Assembly (NCBI GenBank): GCA_963457665.1
Contig: OY735202.1
Span: forward strand, 49,960,781 to 50,024,780
Direction: 5' to 3'
Origin: Thysanoteuthis rhombus
Taxonomy: Eukaryota > Mollusca > Cephalopoda > Oegopsida > Thysanoteuthidae
Length of the DNA stretch: 64,000 bases
The translations under genes were made by a program, and so were the position numbers. The notes beneath the pieces were generated by a model. That model saw nothing but the letters and a program-made list of their open reading frames with translations. It was not told the DNA's origin and did not search any database. Of this stretch, positions 9,028 to 60,062 are shown one piece after another; position 1 is the stretch's first letter; every line of letters starts with the position of its first letter.

Positions 9028-9990
9028 ATGCATAGAGCTTTACACCCTAGAGATGACACAGATAGACTATACGTTAAGAGAAAAGAAAGTGGCAGGGGGC
9101 TCATCAGCATTGAGGATTGTGTCCAGAGAGCTAAAGCCGATCTAGAAAAGTACGTGCAAGCAAACAATGAAGACATCATAAAGAGTGCACGAAACAGCGC
9201 AACAAAAAACAAAGTAGATAACAATGGAACAGCACAGCAAACTAGGAAAGAAAAAATTGTACAGAGAGTTCAAAAGACAGATATAAGATGTGGCAGACGA
9301 CAGATCATGGACGTGGTTACGGAAAGGAAACCTGAAGAGAGAAACGGAATCGCTCATCATGGCAGCTCAAAACAAAAGTATCAGGACTAACTATATAAAA
9401 ACATAAATCGACAAAACACTGACAAACAGCAAGTGCCACCTATGCGTTGAAAGAGATGAGGCAGTAAATCACATAACTAGTGAATGTAGTCATCTCGCTC
9501 AGAAGGAGTATAAGCATAGACACGATAGAATAGCAACAATGATACAATGGGAACTGAGTAAACGAATGGGATTCAACCATGCAGAAAAGTGGTATCAGCA
9601 CGAACCGGAGGCAGCCCTGGAGAATGGCAACCACAAATTACTCTGGGACTTTAACATCAAAACCGACCACCTCATCCAGGCAAGAATACCGGACTTGGTA
9701 ATCGTAGATAAGAAGAGGAAGACCTGCCAAATAGTAGACATGGCTGTACCTGCAGACCATAGAGTAAAGAGGAAAAACTGGGAAAATACCAGGATCTAGC
9801 GAGAGAACTGAAAAAGATGCGGAACATGAAAGCTAGGGTAGTGCCAATCATAGTTGGCGCACTAGGAACTGTCATAAAGACACTGAGGGCGAGGCTGAAG
9901 GAGATCGGGATAGAGGGAAGGATTGAGACTGTACAGACCACAGCACTGCTAGGAACTGCGCGGATACTGAGGAAAGTGCTAGAAATATAA
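9028..9990 (+). pseudogene. RLE-1 pol C-terminus, frameshifted (copy A)
   Basis: Starts at MHRALHPRDDTDRLY in frame, the region following the reverse transcriptase domain. A frameshift lies near 9255-9290, after which the frame carries SWTWLRKGNLKRETESL, then one in-frame stop (TAA near 9400). A CX2CX8HX4C knuckle (CHLC..H..C) is encoded at 9433-9487, followed by KRMGFNHAEKWYQ and the endonuclease signature PDLVIVDKKRKTCQIVDM (from 9689), i.e. PD-X14-D. A second frameshift near 9780 precedes the conserved end VPIIVGALGTV..TALLGTARILRKVLEI and the stop at 9988-9990. The catalytic-looking PD and D are present, but at least two frameshifts and a stop make it a pseudogene. In the family the protein nicks the target and primes reverse transcription. 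Confidence 0.85.
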
Positions 9991-10090: not shown

Positions 10091-10160
10091 GGCTGAAGAT
10101 CTGAGGAGACTTATTGTCACTCAGCCTTCAGCGATGACCACTGGGCAACCGGTGTGAAAC
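10091..10160 (+). other. RLE-1 3' UTR structured module 1
   Basis: The outer stem pairs GCTGAAG (10092-10098) with CTTCAGC (10126-10132). It is followed by a hairpin CACTGG-GCAA-CCGGTG at 10139-10154 with a GNRA-type loop. Related to module 2 by tandem duplication, with about 45 nt between them. Confidence 0.75.
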
Positions 10161-10205
10161 TGTAAATCGCAGTATTACTGTGGCCTATGAGAACTAGGAG
10201 AGAAG

Positions 10206-10275
10206 GGCTGGAGACTTGAGGAGACGTGCTGTCACCCAAACTCCAGCGGTTACCACCAGGCAACTGGTGTGAGAT
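10206..10275 (+). other. RLE-1 3' UTR structured module 2
   Basis: The outer stem pairs GCTGGAG (10207-10213) with CTCCAGC (10241-10247), a compensated A-T to G-C change relative to module 1. The hairpin CACCAG-GCAA-CTGGTG at 10254-10269 is perfect. It is followed at once by AAT-type sequence, the element's 3' end. Confidence 0.75.
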
Positions 10276-10284
10276 TGCAAAATA

Positions 10285-10607
10285 ACAACAATAATAACAA
10301 TAATAATAATAATAATAATAATAATAATTGATGATGATGATGATAATCATAATTGAAAATGATAATGATTATTGAAGATAATAATAATTGATGATGATAA
10401 TTATAATGATAATAATACTAATTGAAGATGATGATAATGATTACTGAAGATAATAATTATACTCAGTGATGATGATAATAATAATTGAAGATAATAATGA
10501 TATAAATTCAAGATGGTGATAATAATGCCAATTGAAGATGATGATGATGATAATGATAATTGAAGATAATTATAATAATAATTGAAGATGATAATAGTAA
10601 TTATGAT
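10285..10607. repeat. Degenerate AAT/GAT-rich spacer between RLE-1 copies A and B
   Basis: Imperfect ATAATA and GATGATGAT runs broken by repeated AATTGAAGAT words. It looks like an expanded and eroded tail of copy A, later used as the insertion site for copy B or as its 5' junction. Confidence 0.8.
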
Positions 10608-11256
10608 AATCCAAACGATAAGACCAGACCCAGTAATCGTGGATAAAAAGAGGAGAACCAGACAAATGATAGACATGGCCGTGCCTGCAGACCACTGAGT
10701 AAATAGGAAAGAGAGTGAAAATCTGAAAAACACCAGGACTTGGCAAGAGAACTGAAGATGGTGTGGAACATAGAGGTCAGGGTCGTACCAGTAATATTAG
10801 GTGCACTTGGAACCGTACCAAAGACACTGAAAGCAAGATTGGAGGAAAAGGGGATAAAATGAAGGATCAAGACTGTGCAGACCACAACACTGCTAGGGAC
10901 TGCAGGAATACTGAGGAATACTGCTAGAAATATGAGATCCAAGAACTCAACTGTTAGCAGTGGCCTAAAGACGAGGGTAAAGGAAAGGGAGAAAAGAACT
11001 CAACATTCCCACAAATGGTGGTGTAGGTACAAACCACAATACTGCTGCGATAGGCAAGGGAGAAATGAGAGGAAGGCTGAAGACCTGAGCAGTCTTACTA
11101 TCACCCAGCATTCAGCGATAATCACCAGGCAACTGATATGAAACTGTGAACCACAGCACTGCTGTAGACTGTGGGAGTGTGCAGAGGAGGGCTTGAAATC
11201 TGAGGAGACTTGCTGTCTATCAGTCTCCAGCTATGACCACCAGGCAACTGGTGTAA
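10608..11256 (+). mobile_element. RLE-1 retrotransposon, copy B
   Basis: Truncated inside the endonuclease: it begins at IRPDPVIVDKKRRTRQMID, keeping a PD..D pattern, then has stops and frameshifts before TTTLLGTAGILRN. The 3' UTR has module 1 (11074-11143, hairpin partly decayed, CACCAG-GCAA-CTGATA) and module 2 (11189-11255, perfect hairpin CACCAG-GCAA-CTGGTG at 11238-11253). Same strand as A and C. Confidence 0.85.
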
Positions 11257-11261
11257 ATAAT

Positions 11262-12575
11262 CATAATAAAAATACTACTATCAGAGCATTGACCACACAA
11301 GCCCGATAAAAATGCCTGGGTGTTTTCGAATGTAACACGATAGAAAAGGTAGAAATGAAAGAGAAAATAAGAAGAGAATACCTTAGAAGGGTAAGAAAAA
11401 TACTAGTGGCAAAACTAAACAGTAGGTAACTGATAAAAGTAACGGGCGCATTGACTGTATCAATAGTAAGATACGCAGAACCATTCCTTGGATGGGCAAA
11501 GGAAGAACTCCAATCAATGGACTGGCGAACAAGAAAGCTTATGACAACGCACAAGGCCTTACAACCCAGAGATGACACGGATAGACTGTACGTGAAGAGG
11601 AAATAAGGCACCAGAAGACTCGTCGGCATAGAAGACTGTGCCCAAATGGCCAACACAAGAGTAGAAAAGTATATACATTCAAATAGTAACGACATTATGA
11701 AAAGCACCCGAAGCAGCATAACGAACTACTTAAAAGTAGCAAACGAAGGAGTAATACAGTAAACAAGGAAAGAAAAATGGGAATAGAAGAAAATATGCAG
11801 AGAATTCAAAAAACAGATAAATGATGTTGCAGACGATAGACCATGGACATGGTTACGCAAAGAAAACCTGAAGAGAGAAACAGAATCGCTCATCTTGGCA
11901 GTTCAGAACAAATGCATCAGGACAAACTATATCAAAGCCAAAAATGGACAGAATCCTAACAAACTGCAATTGCCGCCAATGTTTGGGAAGGGATGAAACT
12001 ATAAACCACAAAACTAGTGAATGTAGTCAACTAGCCAAAGAATATAAATGCCGACACGATAGGGTAGTAACTGTGATACAGTGGGAACTGAGTAAACGAA
12101 TGGGATTCAACCATGTGAGAAAGTGGTACCAGCCCAAAAGAATGAAAGTCACAAATTACTCTGGGACTTTGACATCCAAACTGACCACCTCATCCAAGCG
12201 AGAAGACTGAAGTTGGGAATCGTGGATAGGAACTGCTAAATAATAGACGTGGCCGTACCTGTGGATCATAGGGTAAAATAGGAAAAAGAGTGAAAAGCTG
12301 GGAAAATACCAGGACCTGCCAAGGGAGCTGAAGACGGTGAGGAGCATGAAAATCAGGTTAGTGATAGGTGAAGGAGAGATGGGAGGAGGACTGGAGACCT
12401 GAGGAGACTTACTGTCACTCAGCCTTCAACAATGACCACCGGGAAACTGGTGTGAAAATGTGAACCACAGCACTGTTGTGGACTGTGAGAAAGTGGAAAT
12501 GAAGGGCTGGAGACTTGAGGAAACTTGCTGTCACTCAATTTCCAGCAGTGACCACCAGGCAACTGGGGTGAAAAT
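11262..12575 (+). mobile_element. RLE-1 retrotransposon, copy C
   Basis: The longest copy at its 5' side: it begins near CLGVFECNTIEKVEMKEKI, at the end of the reverse transcriptase domain, and runs to the 3' UTR and a (CAT)n tail. A deletion at about 12357 joins the endonuclease region directly to the 3' UTR, so the LLGTARILRK end is missing. Module hairpins: 12437-12452 has CACCGG-GAAA-CTGGTG (GAAA is also a GNRA loop) and 12553-12568 has CACCAG-GCAA-CTGGGG with one mismatch. Confidence 0.85.
11266..12357 (+). pseudogene. RLE-1 pol fragment (copy C)
   Basis: Order of remnants: KEKIRREYLRRVRKIL, RYAEPFLGWAKEELQ, RTRKLMTTHKALQPRDDTD, WTWLRKENLKRETESLI, then after a frameshift a CX2CX8HX4C knuckle (CRQC..H..C) and KRMGFNHVRKWYQ. 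Another frameshift precedes LLWDFDIQTDHLIQARR. The endonuclease PD is missing: RRLKLGIVDRN stands where RRPD..VD occurs in copy A, and several codons plus a stop follow. Multiple stops make it non-functional. Confidence 0.8.
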
Positions 12576-12950: not shown

Positions 12951-14503
12951 TGAAAGCCACCTCTTACTTTCATGAAATATTCACACCCACGGACTTTTTA
13001 TTTGACAAAAAGATCCGTACGGGAAACGAAAGTTAAAATTGAATTAAAATCTACTCAAATAATGAACAGTGTGATTTCTTTGGTTAGCTAGTCGTAATAC
13101 TGAACTATCCCACTGTGGGGCGGGGGATAAAATTTTGCCGAAAAAGTATATACAAATTGATGTTTTGGTACCATACTTATATTATGAACAGTGTGATTTT
13201 CTTGGTTTGCTGTTCATAACACATGGCTGTCTCATCCGATGCTAAAAATTTTGATGATAGAAGAACCTCTTTCTCATATTTTTAGACAAATTTTCTATTG
13301 TTTTTCTTGGAAAATAATTCCATAGAAATTCAAATATATCCGTGATTTTTTTCACAGGTAATTACTAGTGGATAACAATAACCTGTATGTTCTGCATAAA
13401 TTTGTTTCCAATTGATTTTTCTAGTTAACCACTATTAAAACGTCCAAGACAAAAATAATTAATCATTACATAAAAAAAAGAAAAATTTCGTTCGAAATGC
13501 AATATAATTCATTGGACATGGAAACAATTATAAATATGCATATATAAAGTGAATATAAGTTATAAAGTCTGCTTTCTTGTTTTTCTTTCCATCCTTCTTC
13601 ATTTCTTTCTTGATCATATTGTATTTTTTTTTATCTCAAGAATTGATTTTTAAAAATAGGAGACAATATGATGTAGTATGACGTGAAGAAGAAATCTCTT
13701 TTTCTTTCTTTCTCTTATTATCCTCCACTTATTAAGATAGCAACCTCCTTCCTCTTTTACGAATGCTGTCTTTCTCTCTTTAACCGCTCTCTCTTAAAGT
13801 CGCTTAATTCCTTACAAACGCCGTTAACCTATTTGAATGTGGTCTTAACAGAGAATTTCCCCCGTTCTTAGAACTGTCGACTTACGACGCAGTTGATGAT
13901 AACGGAAAACAGAATTAAGTTTTAGCTGAGGTGAGGGGGGGGCTTCCAATGGGTGACTCATAATTTTCGTGTACTTCACCCTTCCAATCACCATTCCTTA
14001 ACATGAATCAAGCAATCAAATTAGGCACTCCTTCAATCATACATCCGTTTTTGTTCGATTTATTCGGAGCTGTAGTTTTAAGAAAGCAATAACCTGGAAT
14101 AGTCTTTGCCATCAAATCGATAACTACCAGCAGCCTGAACTCATCTAAAAACACAACCTAACCCATACATACATGTATGAGTAGATATTCACTCTGCTTA
14201 TCAGAATCGGACCCAAGGATACAAAGCTGGGCTCCCACTTAGAATCAAATGCACACACACACACATACCAAAAGTACAAGCGTGGGTATCCCGTGCGTAT
14301 CAGATTTAGTACAGTAACAATAATCTACGATGCTAACTTGCTAACTACCCCGCCAAGCAATCTAAAAATCTTTGTTCAGTCTGACAGAGAGCTACGATGG
14401 CATGGGAGTTAGTGAGGATCGAAATACCCTATCAATGATTTTCGAGAATAACTTGACAACCGCTGCTCTACAGCAGGCGCGTACTTGTTGAAATGCAGAA
14501 TAC
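12951..14503. other. No gene; short direct repeats and a pyrimidine-rich stretch
   Basis: A 27-bp imperfect direct repeat (ATGAACAGTGTGATTT...) occurs at 13061-13087 and 13185-13211. 13560-13860 is T/C-rich and gives a Ser/Leu-rich frame. No recognisable gene. Confidence 0.45.
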
Positions 14504-15432: not shown

Positions 15433-15792
15433 ATCAAGAACGTCCTCCATTTTGAAAGTTTAGAAATGACCAATCTAGACTTTAACATGCATAATATCTA
15501 CTTCTGTTTGTATGTAGGTATGTATGTATTGATATTTATAGATAAGTTCTGACTGCTAGTAGTTAACTATTTGATGACCGTAGCTATTCCACGATATTGC
15601 TTTCTTGAAATTACTGCTCTGAATAAATCGAACAAAAACGGATGTATGAATGAAGGAGTGCCTAATTTGATTGCTTATAATGGAACTGCACGAAAATTAT
15701 GAGTCACTCAACGGAAGGCTTTTGGAAATATGAAACAGAGCATATCGTATTATAACTATCATCTTCATCCGTGCGCATAGACATGCATTACA
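15433..15792. other. No recognised feature
   Basis: AT-rich, unique-looking within the window. Nothing supported. Confidence 0.4.
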
Positions 15793-35654: not shown

Positions 35655-35821
35655 TTCGCAATCTCACACCAGTTGCCTGGTGGTAACCGCTGGAGTTTGA
35701 GTGACAGCAAGTCTCCTCAAGTCTCCAGCCCCTCTCTCCTAGTTCTCATAGGCCACAGTAATACTTCGGTTTACAGTTTCGCACCGGTTGCCCAGTGGTC
35801 ATTGCTGAAGGCTGAGTGACA
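35655..35821 (-). mobile_element. RLE-1 3' UTR fragment, antisense
   Basis: Read on the minus strand it begins TTGTCACTCAGCCTTCAGC, so module 1 has lost its 5' arm. It has hairpin CACTGG-GCAA-CCGGTG, then complete module 2 with GCTGGAG/CTCCAGC and CACCAG-GCAA-CTGGTG. It ends at about 35655 in GCGAAATAATAA. The upstream side on that strand is a long (AAT)n. It is very close in sequence to copy A at 10.1 kb. Confidence 0.85.
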
Positions 35822-35822
35822 A

Positions 35823-35885
<63 letters not shown>
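35822..35885. repeat. (ATT)n tract at the truncated 5' end of an RLE-1 tail
   Basis: About 21 ATT units, equal to (AAT)n on the element's strand, located at the 5' (truncated) side. ACTACTACC-type triplets continue to about 35910. Confidence 0.95.
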
Positions 35886-49753: not shown

Positions 49754-50095
49754 ACACCAGGCAACTGGTGTGAGATTGCAAATAATAATAATAATATACG
49801 ACCCTAAAAATCTAAACCTAACAGGAGAGTGAGAAAAAAACCCACACACACACATCCAAATGGTAGCAAAAGTGTGAACCACAGCACTGGTGTGATGGGT
49901 GAGGGAGAGATGAGATGTAGGCAGCCTTCAGCAATGACCACCGGGCAACTGGAATGAAACTGTAAACCACACTATTGCTGTGGACTATGAGAGTGTGGAG
50001 AGAATGGCTGGAGACTTGAGGAGACTTGCTCTCACTTAACCTCCAGCAGTAACCACTAGGCAACTGGTGTGAAATTGCAAATAATAATAATATCG
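49754..50095 (+). mobile_element. RLE-1 3' UTR, rearranged copy
   Basis: A solitary terminal hairpin ACACCAG-GCAA-CTGGTGT with (AAT)n lies at 49756-49795, then about 65 unrelated bases. The 3' UTR then resumes at about 49875: module 1 is shortened (CAGCCTTCAGC kept, hairpin right arm altered to CTGGAATG). Module 2 is complete with GCTGGAG/CTCCAGC and CACTAG-GCAA-CTGGTG. It ends in AAT units. Confidence 0.8.
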
Positions 50096-54375: not shown

Positions 54376-54415
54376 TATTTCTATTAATATTCGGACCATC
54401 CTCATCTTGGTTGTT
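54376..54415. repeat. Left arm of a perfect 40-bp inverted repeat
   Basis: Exact reverse complement of 54571-54610. Contains TTCGGACCATCCTCATCTTG. Confidence 0.95.
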
Positions 54416-54570: not shown

Positions 54571-54610
54571 AACAACCAAGATGAGGATGGTCCGAATATT
54601 AATAGAAATA
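54571..54610. repeat. Right arm of a perfect 40-bp inverted repeat
   Basis: Reverse complement of 54376-54415. A third, partial copy of the arm (TTATTCGGACCATCCCCATC) occurs at 55047-55066 inside the (TA)n block. Confidence 0.95.
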
Positions 54611-59394: not shown

Positions 59395-59912
<518 letters not shown>

Positions 59913-60062
59913 GGCAACTGGTGTGAAATTGCTAATAATAATAATAATAATAATGATGATGATGATAATAATAATATGCAACTGGTGTGAAATTATCAAT
60001 AATAATGATAATAATAGGCAACTGGTGTGAAATCGTTAATAATAATGATAATAATAATAATA
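59913..60062 (+). repeat. Three iterated RLE-1 terminal units
   Basis: The terminal word GCAACTGGTGTGAAAT occurs three times, at 59915, 59978 and 60019 approximately, each followed by an AAT/GAT stretch. Only the right half of the hairpin is repeated. Confidence 0.9.

What the first reader, a model, noticed from the sequence alone, without database searches (positions are those of the whole stretch)
10091..10275. Duplicated GNRA-capped RNA module with compensatory change at the 3' end of an RLE retrotransposon
Two tandem modules of about 70 nt each carry an outer 7-bp stem and a 6-bp hairpin. The stem reads GCTGAAG/CTTCAGC in module 1 and GCTGGAG/CTCCAGC in module 2, so both sides changed together. 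The hairpin loop is GCAA in nearly every copy and GAAA in one (12437-12452), both GNRA. Stem changes keep pairing by Watson-Crick or G-U (CACTGG/CCGGTG, CACCGG/CTGGTG, CACTAG/CTGGTG). R2-type elements are known to use a folded 3' UTR for template recognition. This looks like such a signal in duplicated form.
Basis: partly seen in the sequence, partly recalled or inferred. Interest (0 to 1): 0.78.

Follow-up and report, generated by a model that had tools for sequence, protein, structure and literature searches.

The report
Doubled RNA fold ending a LINE
The end of a very abundant "jumping gene" in this animal genome carries a folded RNA signal in two copies 115 bases apart, apparently the handle that the element's own enzyme grips when it copies itself into TAA repeats; the signal seems to have begun at the end of the protein gene and then been duplicated.

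Summary
At 10091-10275 two ~68-nt modules start 115 nt apart. The pair follows the ORF of an RLE-type LINE in TAA-type repeats; the exact M1 core occurs 10,621 times. All 31 examined ORF loci have at least one full module behind the ORF, 27 have two. Older single-module relatives have the same fold, with the 5' arm of P1 on the last ORF codons; the 115-nt unit looks like a tandem copy of ORF end plus 3' end. On an assumed lineage tree 13 stem changes break none of 126 cells. A tree-aware covariation test is weaker: one pair, E 0.025 of 21 tests, none against all pairs. GNRA is not conserved (ACAU and UCACUG elsewhere). M2 runs into TAA arrays in 5377 forward-strand rows, M1-type hairpins in 19 places, one with an M1 tail. 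Best reading: an R2-like template-recognition element for target-primed reverse transcription, duplicated. The mechanism is inferred.

The parts
9407..9990 (+). 3' part of the LINE ORF: CCHC knuckle and RLE-like domain (9407-9799 open), then out of frame; stop TAA 9988-9990 after codons ...KVLEI
   Evidence: translation; zf-RVT E 0.012, below Pfam's cutoff; related intact ORF in L134; stop read
10091..10158 (+). module 1 (M1): P1 10092-10132 (7+5+3 bp), 6-nt linker 10133-10138, P2 hairpin 10139-10154 with GCAA loop
   Evidence: z -4.9
10159..10205 (+). spacer between modules; a decayed copy of the ORF-end codons (QTTALLG...KVLE)
   Evidence: best spacer/coding pair (another copy) z 7.1, 0 of 300 shuffles; this copy's spacer 0 of 300 against the old-family string but 11, 25 and 90 of 300 against three coding copies of the window
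10206..10273 (+). module 2 (M2), the terminal one: P1 10207-10247, linker 10248-10253, P2 hairpin 10254-10269 with GCAA loop
   Evidence: z -3.0
10274..10330 (+). 3' tail and TAA-type microsatellite in which the element ends
   Evidence: 70 of 76 distinct 3' ends followed by such repeats
11075..11257 (+). second, older copy of the module pair (M1 decayed)
12389..12572 (+). third copy of the module pair; M1 loop GAAA and G.U pairs
35658..35824 (-). 5'-truncated copy inside (TAA)n: part of M1 plus M2
49922..50081 (+). copy with M1 cut at its 5' end, M2 complete
49755..49785 (+). tiny insertion: only P2 and the tail, beside TAA-like repeats
59599..59782 (+). copy interrupted in M2 by a (TAA)n array
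59912..60035 (+). three tiny 3'-end-only pieces (GCAACTGGTGTGAAA...) in TAA-type arrays

Best explanation
The module is the template-recognition and initiation element of an R2-like, RLE-encoding LINE that inserts into (TAA)n. In the element RNA, hairpin P1, a 6-nt linker and hairpin P2 form a compact shape next to the 3' end. The element's own reverse transcriptase binds it and starts target-primed reverse transcription (TPRT) on a nicked TAA repeat. The older state is one module whose P1 begins on the last codons of the ORF. In this family a ~115-nt unit (ORF end plus 3' end) was tandemly copied, so that two free modules follow the stop codon. M2 is the terminus. M1 is kept as a second folded copy 115 nt upstream, probably an accessory binding site. 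Shown: fold, lineage-level pairing, homology to the ORF end, spacing, TAA ends, M2 as the usual terminus. Inferred: protein binding, TPRT initiation, the role of M1.
For: Fold energies. The 21 pairs predicted from the M2 consensus alone are kept in SING (21 of 21) and OLD (20 of 21), which were found by homology and not by pairing. On a lineage tree that I assumed, 13 stem changes leave 0 of 126 cells broken; 0 of 200,000 random placements did so (63 of 200,000 without the OLD branch); stems changed 13 times over 42 columns, other columns 37 times over 26. Older subfamilies hold the G.U step of A-U>G-C at pair 53-62 as their consensus. 27 of 31 loci have two full modules behind the ORF (one of the 31 is the window, and the module profile was built partly from these loci). 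Spacing 115 nt in 27 of 27 linked pairs. Insertion ends lie in TAA-type repeats. Very short insertions that seem to hold only the last ~20-50 nt suggest that synthesis starts at this end. R2 proteins use a two-stem core of 43-68 nt near the 3' end (passages).
Against: No binding or TPRT data. In the tree-aware test only pair 11-34 passes (E 0.025 of 21 tests; 6-38 E 0.19; 53-62 E 0.55) and nothing passes against all column pairs; with 135 modules none passed (best E 0.095). Pairing kept on internal branches (39 of 87 changes) is not above the null (50 of 300 simulations as high). Dead copies of OLD diverge as much in stems as elsewhere (14.8% and 14.2%). Adenosines at both J1/2 positions 2 and 3, which R2 needs, are absent from the common linkers of M1, M2 and SING. 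The reverse strand folds almost as well. Short insertions lacking P1 do not show whether P1 is needed, because truncation happens after initiation.
Confidence: 0.66

Rival explanations
1. Coding remnant: P1 (and perhaps P2) are only decayed codons of an older, longer ORF end, and the pairing follows from those codons; the second copy is a passive duplication.
For: P1 is homologous to the ORF end of single-module families; 18 of 36 spacer/coding comparisons are reached by at most 4 of 300 shuffles. In OLD the reading frame has no stop at the TGG/TGA codon in 22 of 40 copies, no stop at the codon before the linker in 17 of 40, and is open through P2 in 8 of 40, so even P2 may once have been coding.
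Against: In SING 13 of 14 copies have a stop inside P1 and in the duplicated family both modules lie behind the stop codon, yet all 21 consensus pairs are kept, and U.G at 12-33 and G.U at 13-32 of OLD are Watson-Crick there. P2 keeps its stem while its loop changes in length and sequence.
Confidence: 0.12
2. RNA stability, 3'-end formation or nuclear export element of the LINE transcript, not a template-recognition element.
For: A stable pair of stem-loops at a 3' end fits such roles as well; no call here tests binding.
Against: The element ends in the target repeat right behind the module; the studied relatives use this position for TPRT (passages of PMC10499050, PMC12222951). Weak evidence.
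Confidence: 0.15
3. The apparent compensation is a mutational artefact (CpG decay in both arms of a palindrome) or shared ancestry of a few subfamilies.
For: Pair 53-62 lies in a CCGG/CCGG context; stem changes are nearly all transitions (12 of 13 on the lineage tree); tree-aware test weak.
Against: With OLD and SING as outgroups pair 53-62 went A-U > G.U > G-C, creating CpG and not losing it; pairs 6-38 and 11-34 are not CpG sites; random placement almost never keeps all pairs.
Confidence: 0.07

Closest known systems
R2 3' UTR core (P1-J1/2-P2; R2Bm 43-nt 'R2 tag'; avian/turtle 65-68-nt pseudoknot-hinge-stem)
   Same: Two helices joined by a short linker (6 nt here, 6-nt hinge in A-clade R2) near the element's 3' end, about 68 nt, in a LINE with an R2-like reverse transcriptase
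   Different: Different sequence; J1/2 adenosines 2 and 3 not both present; no pseudoknot established; present twice; insertion in TAA-type repeats and not in 28S rDNA; P1 begins on ORF codons in single-module families
R4/Dong LINEs (Bombyx Dong; 'Dong-R4' annotated in Octopus vulgaris)
   Same: LINE with an RLE-like C-terminus; TAA repeats at the Dong junction (PMC3774820, passages); Octopus Dong-R4 is recently active, 1129 insertions and 4,732,901 bp, about 4.2 kb each (PMC13282606, Table 1 passage)
   Different: No reference sequence was compared and the species here is not known; no HDV-like ribozyme found in five loci; the passages read do not speak of 3' modules
HERO-clade and other microsatellite-targeting RLE LINEs
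   Same: Microsatellite target (PMC4640811, passages)
   Different: Clade not tested; the microsatellite named in the passages is (TG)n for Togen
Duplicated RNA structures of the dengue virus 3' UTR
   Same: Tandem duplication of a structured 3' RNA (PMC6325252, title and start of abstract in a search listing only)
   Different: A virus; different fold and function; analogy only

Membership tests
RLE-encoding LINE (R2/R4/HERO/NeSL/CRE group) | Reverse transcriptase of LINE/R2 type | tested here: met
   RVT_1 1.2e-27; best PDB hits R2, 9nl2 1.2e-23, L134 ORF of 1230 aa
RLE-encoding LINE (R2/R4/HERO/NeSL/CRE group) | C-terminal CCHC knuckle and PD-(D/E)-type endonuclease, no APE domain | tested here: inconclusive
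   Weak second stretch aligns the CCHC, RHD/RHN and RPDL...D region with R2 (8.1 bits, i-Evalue 3.8); meaning of the motif recalled; no structure predicted; Pfam lists only RVT_1 and zf-RVT
R4/Dong clade | Insertion in TAA repeats (Dong) | tested here: met
   70 of 76 distinct 3' ends run into TAA/TGA/CAT-type repeats, 10.4% of random window 30-mers; 5377 forward rows for the exact M2 end plus TAA array, control 0
R4/Dong clade | RT phylogeny within R4 | not tested
   No R4/Dong reference sequence at hand
R4/Dong clade | HDV-like ribozyme at the 5' end | tested here: inconclusive
   No Rfam HDV match at E<=1 in L134, L009, L010, L012, L013; true 5' ends not established
R2 3' UTR TPRT core | Two helices P1 and P2 joined by J1/2 | tested here: met
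   Predicted, not probed
R2 3' UTR TPRT core | Adenosines at J1/2 positions 2 and 3 | tested here: not met
   Commonest linkers AAUGAC and GAUAAC (M1), GGUUAC (M2), AAUAAC (SING); only OLD has GAAAGC; requirement from PMC10499050 section 8
R2 3' UTR TPRT core | Binding by NTE-1 and TPRT initiation | not testable with these tools
   needs protein and RNA in vitro
Known Rfam RNA family | Covariance-model match over the module | tested here: not met
   No gathering-level match in the window; no match in L134 at E<=1

The most novel reading that the evidence does not exclude
Duplication split one TPRT recognition element into two specialised sites. M2 is the initiation terminus. M1, present as 10,621 exact cores yet hardly ever an insertion end, is a dedicated second docking site at a fixed 115-nt distance, for example for a second protein subunit. 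The signal was born at the 3' end of the ORF, so that the same nucleotides once encoded the protein's C-terminus and served as the RNA handle.
Probability: 0.25. Interest if true: 0.68.

Novelty: new variant of a known kind. Interest (0 to 1): 0.5.

Why it matters
How LINE proteins recognise their own RNA is worked out in structural detail for R2 and few others (recalled). This gives a compact, computable candidate in another RLE-type LINE with thousands of copies. It suggests how such a signal can arise (on the ORF end, then duplicated) and offers a natural experiment in which two copies of one fold diverged and one of them serves as the insertion end. If confirmed, the 68-nt module might tag RNAs for insertion into TAA repeats, as the R2 tag does for rDNA.

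Tried and rejected
Rfam on the window: no match; on five loci: no HDV ribozyme. RLE protein in viral contigs and genome contigs: 6 and 22 pattern stretches, none a relative, so no other species could be added. A first covariation test with 135 modules gave no significant pair; the larger one gave one of 21. Direct alignment of the ORF end (U0) with U1 and U2 is weak or absent (10 and 232 of 500 shuffles as good); the triplication therefore rests on single-module families as a bridge and on the spacers, and U0-U1 is the weakest link. Terminal branches kept pairing in 120 of 395 changes. A 20-kb sample at five arbitrary places held no copy, so the density of the window is not typical of it. Rows dropped: 99 nhmmer hits became 65 distinct full pairs; 169 modules became 135 distinct; for the 192-module alignment six rows (fragments, odd or repeated ones) were left out and short hits skipped. 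A wider truncation map was planned and not obtained. The clade of the LINE and the species were not reached. The listings, and the passages read, showed no duplicated or ORF-overlapping 3' module in an RLE LINE; most listed papers were not opened, long lists were cut (for example 20 of 96, 15 of 2302), and only open-licence papers are held.

Full report
WHAT IS THERE. Each folds as one long hairpin P1 (7 bp, then 5 bp, then 3 bp, loop of 5), a 6-nt linker and a 6-bp hairpin P2 with a GCAA loop. M1 has z -4.9 and M2 z -3.0 against dinucleotide shuffles; three neighbouring stretches do not stand out; the reverse strands of M1 and M2 fold at z -3.4 and -3.1. The module starts lie 115 nt apart.

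THE ELEMENT. Upstream is the 3' part of a LINE ORF ending ...KVLEI-stop (9988-9990). The translated RLE part of the window (9407-9796) has 40,461 first-look candidates in the genome; the 150 scored are at least 80% identical. A natural intact copy, L134, has a 1230-aa ORF with RVT_1 at 1.2e-27; its best solved-structure matches are R2 proteins (9nl2, 1.2e-23), with a weak second stretch aligning the CCHC / RHD / RPDL...D region (8.1 bits). Of 31 loci (30 from the protein search, one of them the window itself, plus L134) every one has at least one full module behind the ORF and 27 have two (the profile was built partly from these loci). Of 76 distinct 3' ends, 70 run into TAA-type repeats (TAA, TGA, CAT units) against 10.4% of random 30-mers of the window. 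The exact terminal pattern of M2 plus a TAA array gives 5377 forward rows and 11,193 reverse rows, the latter often listed several times per place, control 0. TAA repeats lie at the junction of Bombyx Dong (PMC3774820, passages), and 'Dong-R4' is a recently active LINE of Octopus vulgaris (PMC13282606, passages); that this is the same family is a lead only.

WHERE THE MODULE CAME FROM. Two sets of older, dead relatives in the same genome have one module only. OLD (40 of the 150 matches, fetched as L054-L093) carries ...RVLEYWGDLLSLDLQ over P1: at the W codon 16 of 40 copies have TGG, 18 a stop and 6 other codons; at the codon before the linker 23 of 40 have a stop; 8 of 40 read open through P2. 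So the ancestral ORF of OLD ended within or just behind P1, or even behind P2; in each case the 5' arm of P1 is coding. SING (14 of the 20 stretches L114-L133) reads ...VLEI or VLKI by eye, and 13 of 14 have the stop inside P1. The OLD plurality string aligns with U1 and U2 of the window at z 7.1 and 12.8 (0 of 500 shuffles each). Spacers between modules resemble the codons upstream of the stop: 18 of 36 comparisons are reached by at most 4 of 300 shuffles, the best at z 7.1, while others are not above chance. So the 115-nt unit looks like a tandem copy of ORF end plus 3' end. The link from the present ORF end (U0) to U1 is the weakest: the direct alignment is reached by 10 of 500 shuffles, U0 to U2 by 232 of 500.

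DOES THE PAIRING MATTER? I aligned 192 distinct modules in eight groups. Before that, in 135 of them, cells paired 1074 of 1130 in M1, 815 of 857 in M2 and 659 of 836 in OLD; structures slid by 1-3 columns give 25-44%. Between lineage consensuses three pairs changed on both sides: 6-38 (G-C in M2, SING, OLD; A-U in M1), 11-34 (U-A in OLD, SING, B-type and young M2; C-G in M1 and A-type M2), and 53-62 (A-U in OLD, SING, M2; G.U in older M1; G-C in young M1). On a lineage tree that I assumed, 13 stem changes leave 0 of 126 lineage-by-pair cells unpaired; random placement of the same changes did so in 0 of 200,000 trials (63 of 200,000 without the OLD branch). Stems changed 13 times over 42 columns, other columns 37 times over 26. 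The root, OLD, itself lacks pair 2-42. The 21 pairs are those predicted from the M2 consensus alone, and OLD and SING were collected by homology. A simpler M2-to-M1 comparison (7 stem changes, 3 double, none broken) is matched by 175 of 200,000 random placements.

AGAINST. A home-made R-scape-like test (FastTree, substitutions re-dealt on the tree, APC-corrected G-test) gave no significant pair with 135 modules (best E 0.095). With 192 it gave one of 21 (11-34, E 0.025), with 6-38 at 0.19 and 53-62 at 0.55, and nothing against all column pairs; pairing kept on internal branches was 39 of 87 changes, not above the null. Dead copies lose pairing freely: 120 of 395 terminal changes kept it, and OLD diverges alike in stems (14.8%) and elsewhere (14.2%), while M1 (4.5 and 8.0%) and M2 (4.4 and 6.4%) diverge less in stems. 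So the structural case rests on few master lineages. GNRA is not conserved: SING has ACAU and OLD UCACUG on the same P2 stem.

M1 AND M2 DIFFER. The exact M1 core GGCAACCGGTGTGAAACTGTAAA occurs 10,621 times (5205+5416, control 0). M1-type hairpins running into TAA arrays are rare: 13 forward and 12 reverse rows, 19 distinct places by my count; about ten of them have an M2-type tail, one (C26:47506070) an M1-type tail, and the rest are too short or altered to call. In the stretch of contig 1 covered by the cut listings of both patterns, 27 of 41 forward M2 ends have an exact M1 upstream, each at 115 nt; 14 have none, and 17 of 44 exact M1 have no listed M2 end, which may mean a changed M2 or tail. 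So M1 is kept in thousands of copies but is hardly ever the insertion terminus.

SHORT INSERTIONS. The pattern TAATAATAAT, 0-30 nt, GGCAACTGGTGTGARATTG has 372 forward rows (several per place) and 72 reverse rows, control 0. Among the rows listed there are 34 distinct places; 25 match the element for 0-5 nt and 32 for 0-9 nt upstream of GGCAAC by the script, though two scored 7 extend further by eye and a few have other sequence between. These look like insertions of the last ~20-50 nt, with truncation points crowding at P2. Their downstream ends were not checked, and A-rich microhomology with TAA could bias the points.

HOW IT MOST LIKELY WORKS. In R2Bm two stems P1 and P2 joined by J1/2 are bound by NTE-1, and a 43-nt tag suffices for TPRT (PMC10499050, passages and section 8). 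R2Tg has a minimal 67-nt 3' UTR (PMC12222951, passages). Avian and turtle R2 have a pseudoknot, a 6-nt hinge and a 3' stem in about 65 nt (PMC12180492, passages). The module here has a similar layout, size and place, but another sequence, and lacks the paired J1/2 adenosines. I conclude that it works like the R2 core without being shown to be a member of it. The role of M1 as a second docking site is a guess.

VERDICT. A real structured RNA element, a new variant of a known kind. What looks new is the origin on the ORF end, the tandem duplication with fixed spacing, and the near-exclusive use of M2 as terminus.

Noticed in passing
window 59784-60060: A long (TAA)n array interrupts M2 of one copy, and three tiny 20-30-nt LINE 3' ends follow one after another in TAA-type repeats; similar 3'-end-only pieces occur elsewhere in the genome and their truncation points crowd at hairpin P2 (25 of 34 listed places).
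   Followed up: partly
window 14010-14151 and 15535-15676: Inverted repeat of about 142 bp, 86.7% identical, about 1.4 kb apart: possibly termini of another mobile element.
   Followed up: no
window 54376-54415 and 54571-54610: Perfect 40-bp inverted repeat.
   Followed up: no
L013 608-726 (-) and L012 5839-5930 (+): 5S rRNA matches (62.9 bits, and 37.3 bits just below the cutoff of 38) in stretches that hold LINE copies; could be 5S-derived SINEs or dispersed 5S genes.
   Followed up: no
G000:C2:58114535-58114915 (-): The RLE match lies in a stop-free frame of 2612 aa, about twice the 1230 of L134; perhaps two elements in frame or a fusion.
   Followed up: no
L046 2150-2969, L030 926-2609, L008 1106-2931, L018 6288-8210: Several module pairs of the LINE lie within a few hundred to two thousand bases of each other, as if new copies often land beside old ones; a possible source of the 115-nt duplication.
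   Followed up: no
window 10609-10933 and 11939-12363: Further partial RLE ORF pieces (75% and 73% identical to the ORF part at 9401-9990), so that three successive 3' ends lie within about 2.3 kb.
   Followed up: partly
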